From: Dipodascopsis uninucleata var. uninucleata
Lineage: Eukaryota > Ascomycota > Lipomycetes > Lipomycetales > Lipomycetaceae
Assembly (NCBI GenBank): GCA_030568195.1
Contig: JAJLTO010000004.1
Span: 620,001 to 684,000, forward strand
Length of the DNA: 64,000 nt
Reading direction: 5' to 3'
Shown here: piece after piece, positions 54,294-61,980 of the stretch
How the letters are laid out: every line of letters begins with the position of its first letter
Position numbering within the stretch: position 1 is the stretch's first letter
Made by a program: the position numbers and the translations under genes
The notes under the pieces: generated by a model
What the model was told of the DNA's origin: nothing
Seen by the model: the letters and a program-made list of their open reading frames with translations, nothing else
Database searches by the model: none

Positions 54294-56394
54294 ATGCCGT
54301 CTCTTATCTCGTCGGCAGATAAAGAGAAAATCAAGAGAGCTGTGCCAAAATCAACCAATAAGGTGATAGAATCTGCGGTTGCTCGATTGTATATCGCATA
54401 CCCGGATCCGAATGCTTGGACTTTCACTGGCGTATCTGGAGCAGTAGTCTTGGTGAATGACTTAACAGGAAACACATTTTTCTTTAAAATTGTGGATATA
54501 ATCGGCAATCGAGGTGTGATATGGGATCAAGAGCTCTATATTGATTTTCAGTATAACCAAGATCGAGCTTTTTTCCACACTTTCGAACTAGAGGAATGCT
54601 ATGCGGGACTTCTATTCGCTGACGACTCAGAGGCACACCATTTCCTCAAAAGAGTCCAACAGAGAGATAAGCATGCATCGAAAGCTACTCTGAATAATAA
54701 GAATGCAATTGCTCTAAAAAAATCACCGAGCGCAGCTGTTGCTGGGCCTCGCGGTGATGTTTTGAGATACCAAAAGATGGGAAACAACTATACCTTGGCA
54801 CAAATACATACGGAGGAATCAGAGCCGAATACGGAGCGTAAAAGCTCAGAAGCCGATGATGAAGATATAGATCCTTCGTGGAAGAAGCTGTTTTCTCAGC
54901 TTGAAGAGATGGGAATCTCGGAGGAAATGATAGCCAACAATGCCGACTTCATTAAGGATTATATTACCAAGGGAGAGCTACCCCCATCTCGATCATCTAC
55001 AATAGACAAGAAGTCAAAAGGACCGCCACCTCCACCACCTTTGCAGCCTCCGACTTCTCGCTCGAGTGCACCGTTACGAAATAATGTACCACCACCATTC
55101 AACAGAGATAACAGCAGTTATTCCAATTCTGGGTCGTCATCACCAGTCGGAGCTGGAACACCTCCACCACCTCCACCGAAATCACCACCACCGCCTGCAG
55201 GTCCGATGTATAAAGTACCACCGCCATTCATTCCACCAGCAGGTGCACCTGTTGGAAGATCTTCTAGTCAATTGTCTCAGTCACCAGCATCTCCAGGTTC
55301 AGGCTCAGACTCTGTTACACCCGTCGTTGAACGTCGAACACCAGCACCGGGCCATAAATATAGCCTACCACCTCCTTTTCCAGGTGTAGGATCTAATGTA
55401 ACGTCTGTTAGACCGCCTTCAGCTTCTCCATTATCACCACCACCATCTTTCGGCAATCCAACCGTGACCGGAAGAGCACCACCGCCATTGCCTGCGCGCG
55501 AGAATTCTCCTGGTAATGTAATGCCTCTGCCTCAAAATATTGCGAATCGACCAGTACCGCAACCTCCTTCACTTCCGCCGCGAGGACCAGTGCAGAACGG
55601 TTTAGCACCAACATTCGGTGCGCCGCCCATGTCTGGTAGGGCCGTTCCTCCGCCTCCACCACCTCATCGTCATGCTTATTCGGCCTCGAGCAAGCCTTCT
55701 ACGCCTGCATATCAGCCTGTGTCGTCTCCAGGTCCACCACCACCACCTCATCCGCCGGGTTATGGGAATGGTGCGACGTCTTCTCGTCCTACAGCTCCGA
55801 TGCAAAGCTTCGCTCAACCACCGCCACCACCACCGCCTCCTCCATCATATGGACAGAGTCAACAAAGACCAGCAGTGAATGGTTTCGGCATGCCATCTAA
55901 TGGGCCACCACCACCACCACCTCCTCCTTTGTCATATTCTAGTAGTCCTTTAAGTAATACCGCAACTAATGGTGGACCGCCGCCACCACCACCACCGCCG
56001 CCGTCATTCGGCTCTGCTATGGACACCAATGACTTTGCAACAGCACCTACGGCAGCACCTGATACTAATATTGATGGTCGCGATGCCCTTATGGCTTCAA
56101 TTAGAGGTGCTGGTCTAGGTCAGCTAAAGAAGGTGGACAAAACACATCTTAATCAGCCATTAGTCGTCAGTACGGGCAATGGGCCAAGTAAATCGAGTAC
56201 TCCAGCTCCAGATAGCTCAGGTCCAGGTGGAAGTCTACAGGATGCGATATCTGCCGCATTAAACAAAAGGAAGACGCGCGTTGCAGGTAGTGGTAAGTCG
56301 TTCTTTTGGTCCTTAAATCTATCTGTCTCAAATTTGGAGTTATGTACTAATAATCTTTACAGATGATGAAGACGAAGGCAGGGACGAATGGTAG
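54294..56394 (+). CDS. LAS17: WASP/Las17 actin nucleation-promoting factor
   Basis: Exons 54294-56292 and 56363-56394 give 676 aa. A WH1/EVH1 domain (about 20-125; ARLYIAYPDPNAWTFTGVSGAVVLV, FHTFELEECYAGLLFADDSEAHHFLKRV) binds WIP/Vrp1-type partners. No GTPase-binding CRIB motif is evident, as in yeast Las17. A long Pro-rich region (about 240-585) with many PPPPPP runs offers SH3 and profilin sites. The VCA end is a WH2 motif (GRDALMASIRGAGLGQLKKV, about 595), a central helix (LQDAISAALNKRKTRV) and, in the 32-nt second exon, the acidic DDEDEGRDEW with terminal Trp that contacts Arp2/3. It drives actin patch assembly in endocytosis. Confidence 0.96.
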
Positions 56395-57231: not shown

Positions 57232-57942
57232 ATGGATGCACAAAAATTAGCAAGACTTCAGGCTTCAGTACGAATTGGTAGGTTCTAAAATCGTTATGTG
57301 ATTTTTCAATTAAAAAGTAATACTGACCAACTTTAGGGTATGTGATCTCGACTGGAAACTGATTGATTGACGTTGTCAATTGCGCCGAGCCATTAAATTG
57401 ATGTGGAGACTCTGGATGAATGGTCATAGAAAAGAGATAGATTGCTAACTATAATACAGAGGAAAGGGAACCCCTCGAAGAAAGACTAAGAAAGCCACAA
57501 AGTCCAGTGGAGCTGACGACAAGAAGCTACAGGCTGAACTTAAGAAGCTGAATGTTCAACCTATCCAGGCTATTGAGGAAGTCAACATGTTCAAAGAAGA
57601 TGGCAATGTCATTCATTTCACCGCACCAAAGGGTTAGTTTTATTATATTTTATTGCTTTATGTGTGTATTATTGTTAACTGAGATCCCGCCGTATAGTTC
57701 AAGCTTCAGTCGCTGCTAATACGTTTGCTGTCTACGGTAACCCCGAAGAAAAGGAACTTACTGAGCTTCTACCTAGCATTTTGACCCAGCTCGGACCAGA
57801 ATCTCTTAACGATTTACGCAGATTAGCTGAGCAGTATCAGTCTTTACAGCTTAACAATAAGAAGGAGGGAGAGGAGGAAGATGACGAAATTCCTGATCTT
57901 GTCGCTGGTGAGGATTTCGACAGCAAAAATGATGTTGAATAA
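57232..57942 (+). CDS. EGD1: Nascent polypeptide-associated complex subunit beta (BTF3-like)
   Basis: The best model is 57232-57277, a single base at 57337, 57460-57632 and 57698-57942, giving 154 aa. It begins [27 protein letters not shown], with the double Gly expected of NAC beta. The NAC domain follows ([44 protein letters not shown]), then [14 protein letters not shown] and an acidic tail ([17 protein letters not shown]). Both introns around the single base have good donors (GTAGGT, GTATGT), CTGAC/CTAAC branch sites and AG ends. The simpler alternative, one 184-nt intron ending CAGAG at 57461, would drop one of the two Gly. NAC shields nascent chains and blocks mis-targeting to the ER. 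Confidence 0.93.
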
Positions 57943-59058: not shown

Positions 59059-60054
59059 CTAGTGAAAAGACCAACTTACAAAAGGCTGAGCAGGTCGCAA
59101 GAGCTCGAGTATAACTTGTACCGGACTTACAGGTGCGTCTGAAGCGAAAAGCTCATCTGGAACTGAAGTACGAAGTACGAAAGAACGTAGCCGTAGCAGA
59201 GCAATTTCTGGATGATCTTTCGCAAAAGCTTTCGGACTTTTCTTTAAAGCATCTTCACTGTTCATTTGCACAAAACTTTGGATGGGATCGTCCTCTTCAC
59301 CTTTTCCTGTCGCCGCAGGCTCTGCATTTGGAAAATACACAGAAACAAGTGAAGGTGACGATATGATCTCCTTCAAGCGTCTAGCACCCTTATCAATAGT
59401 TTGCCGAATCGCCAATAAGCCCTCTGGATTGCAATCTGCTAGATGCCACATTCCAGCACCTACTCGGCAATCACCGTCGGGCTCTATATGCACATAGTAG
59501 TGAGCGTAGTAGCCACTGCGCCCAGTACGAGAAAAAGCGGCGGAAAAGCTCGTTCGATATGGAGTTTTATCGTTCGTAAATCTCACATCTCGGTGTATTC
59601 TATATGTGAGGTCGCGTACGGGTAGTATAGGCACTGTTTGGTCTATATTTTGTGAGATAGCATTGGATAACGCATCGACGAAGCTATCAAAATCATCCTT
59701 TGCCGCGCGATAGTCGTTCTCATGTGCCCAAAACCATTCGCGCTCATTGTTTTGCTTCAGGTCACGTAGAAATGCCATTGTGTCTGGATGAAGACGCTCC
59801 CTAACATATGGTATAGTCGATTTCGCTCTTTTTGTTTTCGGTACGAAGACTTCTCGTCCATCGAAGGAGTTGTCTGAATCATGTCCATCCTTGACAGCCT
59901 TCTGTTGTTTTACTTCAGGTCGTTTGGCGCCTGACTGGCCCTTCTCTTCATCGTTGTAGTCATTGAATTCCACCAAATTGTCTGCTTTCTTCTGCCTCTT
60001 TGAGGTACCATTTACCAGAGATGTTTTTGATTTCTTGACGCGTTTAGTAACCAT
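59059..60054 (-). CDS. DUF2461 (TIGR02453) family protein
   Basis: One exon, 331 aa. A basic, disordered N-terminus (MVTKRVKKSKTSLVNGTSKRQKK) looks like a nuclear localisation signal. The DUF2461 domain (about 90-320) shows the usual TMAFLRDLKQNNEREWFWAHENDYR, PVRDLTYRIHRDVRFTNDKTPYRTSFSAAFSRTGR and YYVHIEPDGDCRVGAGMWHL. Its biochemical function is unknown across bacteria and fungi. It is convergent with the FMP46-like gene (219 bp apart) and tandem with the decarboxylase gene. Confidence 0.9.
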   Translation of the reverse strand: MVTKRVKKSKTSLVNGTSKRQKKADNLVEFNDYNDEEKGQSGAKRPEVKQQKAVKDGHDSDNSFDGREVFVPKTKRAKSTIPYVRERLHPDTMAFLRDLKQNNEREWFWAHENDYRAAKDDFDSFVDALSNAISQNIDQTVPILPVRDLTYRIHRDVRFTNDKTPYRTSFSAAFSRTGRSGYYAHYYVHIEPDGDCRVGAGMWHLADCNPEGLLAIRQTIDKGARRLKEIISSPSLVSVYFPNAEPAATGKGEEDDPIQSFVQMNSEDALKKSPKAFAKDHPEIALLRLRSFVLRTSVPDELFASDAPVSPVQVILELLRPAQPFVSWSFH

Positions 60055-60405: not shown

Positions 60406-61980
60406 TTAGCATACTCCCTTGAAGTTTCCGTGGTTATGGCTGTGATGACGACCAGCAGAGTGATTACTACCACCATGAGACGGCGTAGTTACTCTACTGA
60501 TAGGTCCGAGTGAGCTTTCAAGAACGCGACGACTGTGAGCGATACGTAAAGGGTGCTCACTAGAAGCAATGTTAGAAGCAAAAGTTTCGTTCTCAGCAAG
60601 AGCCTGAGTAACAGTAAATATATCACTAATCAAGCGATCAATAAGGTCTCGCGACATAGAGGCACGAACGACAACACGCAGAATTTCAATGTTTGACTCA
60701 TTGGGTGGTAATGGGTAGTTGGGAATGATATATCCCTTTGCGCGTAACAAAGTAGAAATAGATGACTGTTGAACCTTTGGGTGAGCTGCCTTATAGCGAT
60801 CTGAGAGATGGAACGCAACAACAGGCAAAGCTGGAATATAACCATCACCCTGACCACTTATGTCAGTGCGGTGGACATCTGAAACGACAGTGAAGTCTGG
60901 AGAGTTGTCAAGAACAGAAGCTAAGCGCCTAGCATTGGCAAGTGAGTCGCTATGAACTGATGTGTAGCCAGTACGTCCTAGACGAAGGAAATTGTAATAC
61001 TGCTGCACAACCTGATGTCCTGGTCGAGAAAAATTAAGAGTGTAGGACTGCTCAACACCGCCAAGATACGCAAGCTCAAAAATGAGATGCTTTGGTAAGC
61101 ATGCCTCAGAACGCCAGACGATCCAACCAAGACCTGAGCTGACAAGACCATATTTATGGCCAGATGTATTGATAGAGTGAACACGAGGAATTGAGAAGTC
61201 CCATTTGACATGAGGATGACAGAAGGGCGCTATAAATCCACCAGAAGCACCGTCAACATGGATTGGTATGTCAATTCCAGTGCGCTCCTGAAACTCATCG
61301 AGAATAGCAGCGACCTTCTCAACTGGCTCATAATGACCAGTGTATGTTGAGCCCAAGATGACGAAAACACCGATGGTGTTCTCATCGAGTAAATCAGGCA
61401 ATTTGGTGACATCCAAAGCATGATTAGATTGCTGCGAAACTGGAACAAGACGAGCCTCAACATCGAAATAACGAGCGAACTTCTCTAGTGCTACCTGAGC
61501 ATTAGCACCCATGATGATATTGGGCTTGGAGCTATCCTTTCCTGCCGCCTGGCGGCGCTCTACCCAGGCACGCTTCATGGCTAACCCTCCGAGGTGGATA
61601 GCTTCAGATGATCCAGTAGTAGCGGAACCAATCGCAGTGTCAGCTGGATTTGCATGCCACAGATCAGCCAGAATGTTGACACATCGAGCGTGGATATCAG
61701 TAAGAGCAGGATACTCATCAGAATCAGCCAGATTCTTGGTGAGGTTCTCTGAGGCAAGCAGTGCGCTCTCCTCATCAACAGCTGTTGTGACGAAGGAAGC
61801 TAAATTGAGGTTGGGACGTCCATCGAGCTCTAGATCATCTCGAATAACTTGATAAGCAGCCTTACCGGAGACACCTTGCTTGGGGATTCTATGCTTTGGC
61901 GTTGAGGCAATAGTATATCGCTCGTCGGCAAGATACTGCTGTTCAACCTGAGAGCCACCAGTTGTCTGTTTAGACAGCAT
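60406..61980 (-). CDS. GAD1: Glutamate decarboxylase
   Basis: One exon, 524 aa, starting MLSKQTTGGSQVEQQYL. This PLP enzyme turns L-glutamate into GABA and CO2. Visible marks are NLNLASFVTTAVDEE, GSATTGSSEAIHLGGLAMKR, the PLP-binding HVDGASGGFIAPF (Asp contacting the pyridine N) and SINTSGHKYGLV with Schiff-base Lys about 276. GWIVWRSEACLPKHLIFELAYLGG and RPGHQVVQQYYNFLRLGR also fit GAD. The last 25 residues are His-rich (SAGRHHSHNHGN) and end in Cys, unlike the catalytic core. The gene has an unusually long upstream region with stress-type motifs. In yeast, GAD supports oxidative stress tolerance via the GABA shunt. Confidence 0.97.
   Translation of the reverse strand: MLSKQTTGGSQVEQQYLADERYTIASTPKHRIPKQGVSGKAAYQVIRDDLELDGRPNLNLASFVTTAVDEESALLASENLTKNLADSDEYPALTDIHARCVNILADLWHANPADTAIGSATTGSSEAIHLGGLAMKRAWVERRQAAGKDSSKPNIIMGANAQVALEKFARYFDVEARLVPVSQQSNHALDVTKLPDLLDENTIGVFVILGSTYTGHYEPVEKVAAILDEFQERTGIDIPIHVDGASGGFIAPFCHPHVKWDFSIPRVHSINTSGHKYGLVSSGLGWIVWRSEACLPKHLIFELAYLGGVEQSYTLNFSRPGHQVVQQYYNFLRLGRTGYTSVHSDSLANARRLASVLDNSPDFTVVSDVHRTDISGQGDGYIPALPVVAFHLSDRYKAAHPKVQQSSISTLLRAKGYIIPNYPLPPNESNIEILRVVVRASMSRDLIDRLISDIFTVTQALAENETFASNIASSEHPLRIAHSRRVLESSLGPISRVTTPSHGGSNHSAGRHHSHNHGNFKGVC

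What the first reader, a model, noticed from the sequence alone, without database searches (positions are those of the whole stretch)
57277..57460. One-nucleotide internal exon in the NAC beta gene
Between coding exons ending ...CGAATTG (57277) and starting AGGAAAGGG (57460) lies 182 nt. It reads as two complete introns separated by a single G at 57337. Intron A (57278-57336, 59 nt) has GTAGGT, CTGAC and TTTAG; intron B (57338-57459, 122 nt) has GTATGT, CTAAC and ACAG. Splicing in the lone G gives ATT GGA GGA AAG, the [11 protein letters not shown] motif conserved in NAC beta. The single-intron alternative needs the second AG in CAGAG and loses one Gly. Exons this short cannot be recognised by exon definition, so stepwise (recursive-type) splicing is likely: removing intron A creates the G|GTATGT donor used for intron B. 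Single-nucleotide exons are very rare in any eukaryote.
Basis: partly seen in the sequence, partly recalled or inferred. Interest (0 to 1): 0.88.

Follow-up and report, generated by a model that had tools for sequence, protein, structure and literature searches.

The report
One-nucleotide exon in yeast NAC beta
In the yeast Dipodascopsis uninucleata a highly conserved gene appears to contain an exon that is a single letter long, and database proteins suggest that many other fungi share it and have this gene wrongly annotated because of it.

Summary
In detail: every coordinate and motif is as stated. The window is from Dipodascopsis uninucleata (Lipomycetaceae). Its deposited NAC-beta protein (P0001, 154 aa) equals the one-nucleotide-exon product letter for letter. 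In the DNA, the only canonical route to that N-terminus is intron 57278-57336, lone G57337, intron 57338-57459; no single canonical intron gives it.

The larger result lies outside the window. At the same junction, 24 of 120 annotated NAC-beta proteins listed by two capped searches read RIGGKG, against 62 of 63 contig-derived ones. The errors look like gene predictors bridging a one-nucleotide gap between ATT-G| and YAG|N-GGN-AAG. This suggests an old lone-G exon shared by Lipomycetaceae and Pezizomycotina. That is inferred from proteins; no relative's DNA was found, and a third search listed 5 of 6 new Pezizomycotina entries with Gly-Gly.

The claim that removing intron A creates donor B is wrong: donor B is intact beforehand, and both orders give the same mRNA. 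One-nucleotide exons are known in plants (APC11, VPS55) and Fusarium CYP621A, so this is a new, possibly ancient member of a known kind. No RNA was seen.

The parts
57232..57277 (+). Coding exon 1 of the NAC beta (EGD1/BTF3-type) gene, ending ATT G (phase 1)
   Evidence: product agrees with the start of P0001
57278..57336 (+). Intron A, 59 nt, GTAGGT...TTTAG
57323..57327 (+). Branch-site-like CTGAC of intron A
   Evidence: sequence; start of the motif that matches once in the genome
57337..57337 (+). Single-nucleotide exon G, middle base of the second-last Gly codon (G|G|A) that starts GGKG of RIGGKG
   Evidence: left in the mRNA by both canonical routes to the deposited protein
57338..57459 (+). 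Intron B, 122 nt, GTATGT...ATACAG
57445..57449 (+). Branch-site-like CTAAC of intron B
   Evidence: sequence
57460..57461 (+). AG directly after the CAG acceptor (CAGAG); using it gives the in-frame RIGKG alternative through a GAG acceptor
57460..57632 (+). Next coding exon (GKGTPRRK ... TAPK), starting A GGA AAG (phase 2)
   Evidence: P0001
57633..57697 (+). Ordinary downstream intron, 65 nt, GTTAGT...TATAG
57698..57942 (+). Last coding exon with stop TAA (57940-57942)
   Evidence: P0001; exon matched in the genome

Best explanation
G57337 is a constitutive single-nucleotide exon of the NAC beta gene of Dipodascopsis uninucleata. Two ordinary short U2-type introns (59 and 122 nt) lie back to back with one G between them, and each carries its own donor, branch site and acceptor. 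They are removed one after the other by intron definition, because acceptor A and donor B overlap and can hardly both be bound at once. The joined codon G|G|A restores the conserved RIGGKG next to the RRK motif of the N-terminus. Shown: the sequence, the frame, the uniqueness of the route, and the identity of the deposited protein with this product. Inferred: that the deposited protein rests on RNA; constitutive use; stepwise removal; and the order (A first somewhat more likely, since it is shorter and fully transcribed earlier).
For: P0001, the NCBI protein of D. uninucleata, is identical over 154 of 154 residues to the lone-G product. Enumeration of the pre-mRNA 57232-57632: 0 single GT/GC-AG or AT-AC introns of 20 nt or more give the protein, and 2 two-step routes do, both leaving G57337. 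The single genome-wide match of the branch-AG-G-GTATGT motif lies here. BTF3 chains of solved structures also read VRIGGKG, as do 36 of 37 annotated proteins from outside Pezizomycotina newly listed by one search, whose query itself had Gly-Gly (RIGGKG or a close variant). An experimentally verified 61-nt Lipomyces suomiensis intron has the same GUAGGU donor (PMC7138796). The error pattern in annotated relatives fits the same one-nucleotide gap.
Against: No RNA read was seen, and the depositors' exon list was not seen. An in-frame single-intron product (RIGKG) is possible through the second AG of CAGAG, and 10 of 120 annotated relatives were given that form. The whole-genome motif count is no higher than its control. 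The intron survey of this genome was too small and noisy (17 introns; 46 real against 30 decoy calls) to score splice-site strength.
Confidence: 0.91

Rival explanations
1. One intron, 57278-57461, using the second AG of CAGAG; the protein is [10 protein letters not shown] with one Gly.
For: In frame; 10 of 120 annotated relatives carry RIGKG.
Against: It needs a GAG acceptor directly after a CAG, and GAG is a poor acceptor (recalled). The deposited D. uninucleata protein has Gly-Gly. 62 of 63 contig-derived relatives have RIGGKG or RVGGKG; the one miss, P0114, still has Gly-Gly (RTGGKG).
Confidence: 0.04
2. Assembly error: one G is missing at the end of exon 1, and the true gene has a single phase-2 intron ATTGG|GTAGGT...ACAG|AGG.
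For: A one-base error in a short G run would mimic the phase gap.
Against: The deposited protein can be obtained from this sequence canonically only by splicing in G57337. The same phase gap is indicated in many separately sequenced genomes. A rare motif would have to lie in the intron by chance.
Confidence: 0.02
3. A single non-canonical intron (borders GT-CA, TA-AG or AG-GA) gives the Gly-Gly product without a separate exon.
For: Three such cuts give the same protein.
Against: None has accepted borders, while two complete canonical introns are present.
Confidence: 0.01
4. It is a nested stwintron (internal intron inside the donor of an external intron), as in the Lipomyces reticulon-like gene.
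For: Complex introns removed in two steps are proven in the same family (PMC7138796).
Against: Both introns keep unbroken donors, branch sites and acceptors and lie in series; no nested two-step route gives the mRNA. The evolutionary origin could still be related.
Confidence: 0.02

Closest known systems
APC11 single-nucleotide exon of Arabidopsis and other land plants (PMC4674806, Results and Discussion read; PMC8831610, section 12 and passages read)
   Same: One base between two introns; required for frame; missed by annotation; conserved in most land plants; sequential splicing proposed.
   Different: Plant; the lone base is A; 422 nt of intervening sequence in Arabidopsis; proven by cDNA and altered constructs, whereas no RNA was seen here.
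VPS55 1-nt microexon of land plants (PMC8831610, section 12 and passages read)
   Same: Conserved one-base exon, missing in reference annotations.
   Different: Plant gene; transcripts with and without it are known in some species.
CYP621A one-nucleotide exon of Fusarium (PMC12940212, parts 1-2 of 3 read)
   Same: Fungal; local sequence AGGGT; middle base of a Gly codon; a phase-1 exon facing a phase-2 exon; short introns.
   Different: P450 of one genus, rarely expressed, with SRA reads; here a conserved core gene in another subphylum, with signs of wider conservation.
Stwintrons of Lipomyces (PMC7138796, parts 1-3 of 5 read)
   Same: Two U2 introns at one position, removed stepwise, in the same family of yeasts.
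   Different: Stwintrons are nested; here the introns are in series with one exonic base.
Recursive splicing at Drosophila ratchet points (PMC8605326, only the start of the abstract in the listing)
   Same: Acceptor and donor juxtaposed; stepwise removal.
   Different: Ratchet points lie in long introns; here introns are short and one base is kept.
Placozoan mitochondrial cox1 single base pair exon (PMC5436844, title and abstract start in the listing)
   Same: A one-base exon.
   Different: Mitochondrial, not a nuclear spliceosomal case.

Membership tests
Single-nucleotide exon | One base flanked by AG and GT within an intervening sequence | tested here: met
   AG-G57337-GT
Single-nucleotide exon | Each flanking segment has donor, branch site and acceptor of its own | tested here: met
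   sequence
Single-nucleotide exon | The base is required for the conserved protein; no ordinary intron explains it | tested here: met
   against P0001
Single-nucleotide exon | The base is present in mature RNA | not testable with these tools
   No reads available; only the deposited protein
[D] stwintron (strict sense) | Internal intron interrupts a splice element of an external intron | tested here: not met
   Both two-step routes are two intact introns in series
NAC beta (EGD1/BTF3) | NAC domain PF01849 | tested here: met
   PF01849, 88.8 bits against cut-off 21.3
NAC beta (EGD1/BTF3) | Full-length similarity to BTF3, including the RRK-type N-terminus | tested here: met
   phmmer match to BTF3 chains over query residues 1-152
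Recursive splice site | Upstream removal regenerates the downstream donor | tested here: not met
   Donor B GTATGT with G at -1 is already intact
Ancient NAC-beta lone-G exon in Ascomycota | AG|G|GT in the DNA of relatives | tested here: inconclusive
   4 of 4 scans found no NAC-beta locus of a relative; protein signatures only

The most novel reading that the evidence does not exclude
The lone-G exon of NAC beta predates the split of Saccharomycotina and Pezizomycotina and persists in Lipomycetaceae and in many Pezizomycotina. It would then be among the oldest conserved one-nucleotide exons known, and the hidden cause of wrong N-termini in many annotated Pezizomycotina NAC beta proteins.
Probability: 0.7. 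Interest if true: 0.82.

Novelty: new member of a known kind. Interest (0 to 1): 0.7.

Why it matters
It places a one-nucleotide exon in a very conserved gene of a yeast family already used to study intron evolution, and gives an easy system for asking how two spliceosome assemblies share one base. If the wider reading holds, one missed base explains a systematic error in a core ribosome-associated protein across many fungal genomes. The exon would be a test case for gene finders and for why such an arrangement survives.

Tried and rejected
DNA of relatives: the search for related loci in viral contigs and genome contigs found no NAC-beta locus in 4 of 4 scans, so conservation could not be tested on DNA.

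Intron statistics: coding-score surveys of the window plus 200 kb gave too few and too noisy introns (17 introns; 46 real against 30 decoy at the loosest setting). I drew no splice-strength numbers from them. One search scores coding flanks with the same crude model; at the NAC-beta site its best join was not the true one.

RNA structure: the region 57260-57480 folds no better than shuffles (z = +1.21, 181 of 200 shuffles at least as stable), so structure-assisted splicing has no support.

No RNA family and no tRNA gene was found in the window.

Counting slips: one search counted P0122 and P0114 as Gly-Gly; searches use the strict counts given in this report. Annotated or contig-derived labels were transcribed by hand from the source columns (163 annotated, 77 contig-derived). 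Assignment to Pezizomycotina or Lipomycetaceae is by name from memory. I take the short-contig proteins to be mostly transcripts because some read through a 5' leader; their origin was not verified.

Full report
What is in the sequence. The NAC beta gene lies on the + strand at 57232-57942. Exon 1 ends ATT G at 57277; 182 nt later the coding sequence resumes with A GGA AAG at 57460. The first exon ends in phase 1 and the next begins in phase 2, so one base is missing. Inside the 182 nt stands TTTAG-G-GTATGT. To its left is a complete 59-nt intron (GTAGGT, CTGAC, TTTAG) and to its right a complete 122-nt intron (GTATGT, CTAAC, ACAG). The lone G gives the Gly codon G|G|A, and the reading is [12 protein letters not shown]. 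Direct joining frameshifts, retaining intron A stops after RIGRF, and the second AG of CAGAG gives RIGKG.

Which organism and which protein. The best database hit is the NCBI protein of Dipodascopsis uninucleata, 154 aa, 100% identical over the whole lone-G product (letters). The taxonomy places it in Lipomycetaceae, Saccharomycotina. It has PF01849 and aligns over residues 1-152 with BTF3 chains of solved structures, which also read VRIGGKGT. Only this locus matched the protein in the genome search.

Uniqueness. I enumerated the pre-mRNA 57232-57632. No single GT-AG, GC-AG or AT-AC intron of 20 nt or more gives the N-terminal part of the deposited protein. Three single cuts do, with borders GT-CA, TA-AG and AG-GA. 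Exactly two two-step routes do, and they are the same pair of introns in either order, leaving G57337. The depositors' model therefore very probably contains this exon. Since gene finders seldom propose one-base exons (recalled), it probably rests on RNA. That is an inference; I did not see the model or any read.

Chance. The motif CTRAC-N(4-20)-YAG-G-GTATGT has 1 match in 16.2 Mb, both strands, and it is this one; the reversed pattern has 1 + 1, so one per genome is the chance level and the point is its position. In 528,000 strand-bases, 6 places match the consensus with any lone base, about 0.002 per 184 nt. Of these 6 only this one has a clearly coding downstream flank; its upstream score is weak, and 3 of the other 5 offered no usable intron pair and 2 scored below zero.

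Mechanism. Both introns are of ordinary fungal size and have fungal-type signals. A GUAGGU donor on a 61-nt intron is experimentally proven in Lipomyces suomiensis (PMC7138796, parts 1-3 of 5 read). Acceptor A (..TTTAG) and donor B (AGG|GTATGT) share bases, so both can hardly be occupied at once and removal should be stepwise (inference). Either order works on paper. I favour A first, because it is shorter and fully transcribed before acceptor B, at perhaps 70:30 (judgement). Guo and Liu reach a similar stepwise view for APC11 and cite a 9-nt potato invertase exon where the second intron goes first (PMC4674806, Results and Discussion read). Predicted RNA structure offers no help (z = +1.21).

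Relatives: an unexpected pattern. In search 1 (query with Gly-Gly), 23 of 61 annotated proteins read RIGGKG or a close Gly-Gly form, against 58 of 59 contig-derived proteins (Fisher 4.5e-14). With the new entries of one search (query RIGTGKG, which favours aberrant forms) the counts are 24 of 120 and 62 of 63 (1.3e-27). New entries of one search (query with Gly-Gly) read Gly-Gly in 41 of 43 annotated and 14 of 14 contig-derived; all three together 65 of 163 and 76 of 77. Entries are related and the lists are capped, so the P values are only a guide. The 96 aberrant annotated proteins of searches 1 and 2 fall into RIG-X-GKG (44), RIGKG (10) and other (42). In 89 of 96 exon 1 is normal up to VRI or ARI (or RT) and the reading departs at this junction; 7 (P0104, P0148, P0159, P0160, P0165, P0176, P0180) are altered further upstream, and P0170 lacks GTPRR.

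Reading the errors. Suppose exon 1 ends ATT G| before a GTNNGT donor and the next exon begins YAG|N GGN AAG. A predictor that cannot place a one-base exon can slip the donor by four bases: ATT GGT NN| + N gives RIG-X-GKG with X encoded by donor bases 3-4 and the first exon base. GTATGT then gives I, GTACGT T, GTAAGT K or N, GTGAGT D or E, GTGCGT A. Observed X in 45 proteins: I 19, T 14, D 3, K 2, E 2, N 2, H 2, A 1. Thus 43 of 45 fit a donor with a purine at +3, and H (2) needs the rarer GTCAGT. RIGKG fits use of the second AG when the first exon base is A, as in this window. Two further checks used the 'other' class. Where the residue before GKG is R or S (as an AGN codon gives), the residue before it is T, Y, H, D, N, S or F in 16 of 16, as YAG|N demands; several of these 16 are near-relatives, four of them ending FIDRGKG. 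Where RI is followed by something other than G, it is A, V, E or D in 17 of 17 (P0122, miscounted there, would be an eighteenth, D), as ATT G| demands. The remaining 'other' models were not explained one by one, and this scheme was fitted after seeing the data.

That these are misannotations rather than real proteins rests on three points. X differs between near-identical proteins: A. filifer T and A. unguis I against A. venezuelensis Gly-Gly, with tails 100% and 99% identical to the last. Sphaerulina musiva appears twice, once with RIGGKG (P0006) and once with RIGTPRR (P0078), with identical tails. Contig-derived proteins with 100% identical tails to the aberrant Hortaea (P0110) and Exophiala viscosa (P0094) models read RIGGKG (names, identities).

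Taxonomic spread. Among the new annotated entries of one search, 36 of 37 from outside Pezizomycotina read Gly-Gly; the exception, P0234, has a substitution (RTGSKG), not an insertion. In the same list 5 of 6 Pezizomycotina entries also read Gly-Gly and one, Peziza echinospora, reads RIGIGKG. In searches 1 and 2, 18 of 112 annotated proteins outside Lipomycetaceae, by their names Pezizomycotina, read Gly-Gly. In Lipomycetaceae 6 of 8 read Gly-Gly, while L. kononenkoae (N) and L. oligophaga (K) fit the slip of a GTAAGT donor. Orbilia brochopaga (RIGKG) and Peziza extend the pattern to early branches of Pezizomycotina (branching order recalled).

So the simplest reading is one old lone-G exon shared by Lipomycetaceae and many Pezizomycotina. 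Its limits: no relative's DNA could be read; the protein signatures show a one-nucleotide gap, not where the base lies; independent origin is not excluded; and species with Gly-Gly may have the exon, an ordinary intron or none. P0074 (Variospora), for instance, could be spliced with matching phases.

Prior work. One-nucleotide exons: Arabidopsis APC11 (PMC4674806); APC11 and VPS55 conserved in land plants and missing from reference annotations (PMC8831610, section 12 and passages); Fusarium CYP621A, described by its authors as the first in a fungal gene (PMC12940212, parts 1-2 of 3 and passages). VPS55 does not occur in that paper's text, so its claim to be the second example appears to overlook it. 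A placozoan mitochondrial case was seen in a listing only. Searches for single-nucleotide exon, one-nucleotide exon (17), 1-nt exon and variants (41), 1-nt microexon (60), stwintron with nascent polypeptide-associated complex (20), that complex with microexon and fung (42) and D. uninucleata with intron (18) listed no paper that, by title and abstract start, concerns a NAC beta exon. Most subscription journals and all bioRxiv preprints are missing from that library.

Verdict. The recursive wording is only partly right. The kind is known; the gene and the family are new to what I could search, and the probable age is the interesting part. Interest 0.7.

Noticed in passing
P0002-P0183, annotated NAC beta proteins: 96 of 120 annotated proteins listed by searches have an aberrant string at or near RIG^GKG, including entries named Aspergillus fumigatus, A. 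flavus, A. oryzae, A. niger, many Penicillium and lichen fungi: it looks like a systematic annotation error in a core gene.
   Followed up: yes
window 57460-57461: The acceptor of intron B is a CAGAG tandem; its second AG offers an in-frame one-Gly isoform (RIGKG) that could exist as a minor product.
   Followed up: partly
PMC12940212: The Fusarium paper calls itself the second example of a one-nucleotide exon, but VPS55 in plants (PMC8831610, 2022) was published earlier and is not mentioned in its text.
   Followed up: yes
window 54294-56366 +: A 690-aa ORF just upstream of NAC beta has a WH1 domain (107.1 bits), long proline runs and a sub-threshold WH2 match (20.2 against 23.1), so it looks like a WASP/Las17-type actin regulator; its C-terminal end may run into an intron (guess).
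   Followed up: partly
window 60406-61980 -: A 524-aa ORF matches the pyridoxal-dependent decarboxylase family PF00282 (200.8 bits), glutamate-decarboxylase-like.
   Followed up: partly
window 59059-60054 -: A 331-aa ORF matches DUF2461 (PF09365, 205.3 bits), a conserved family without known function by its Pfam description.
   Followed up: no
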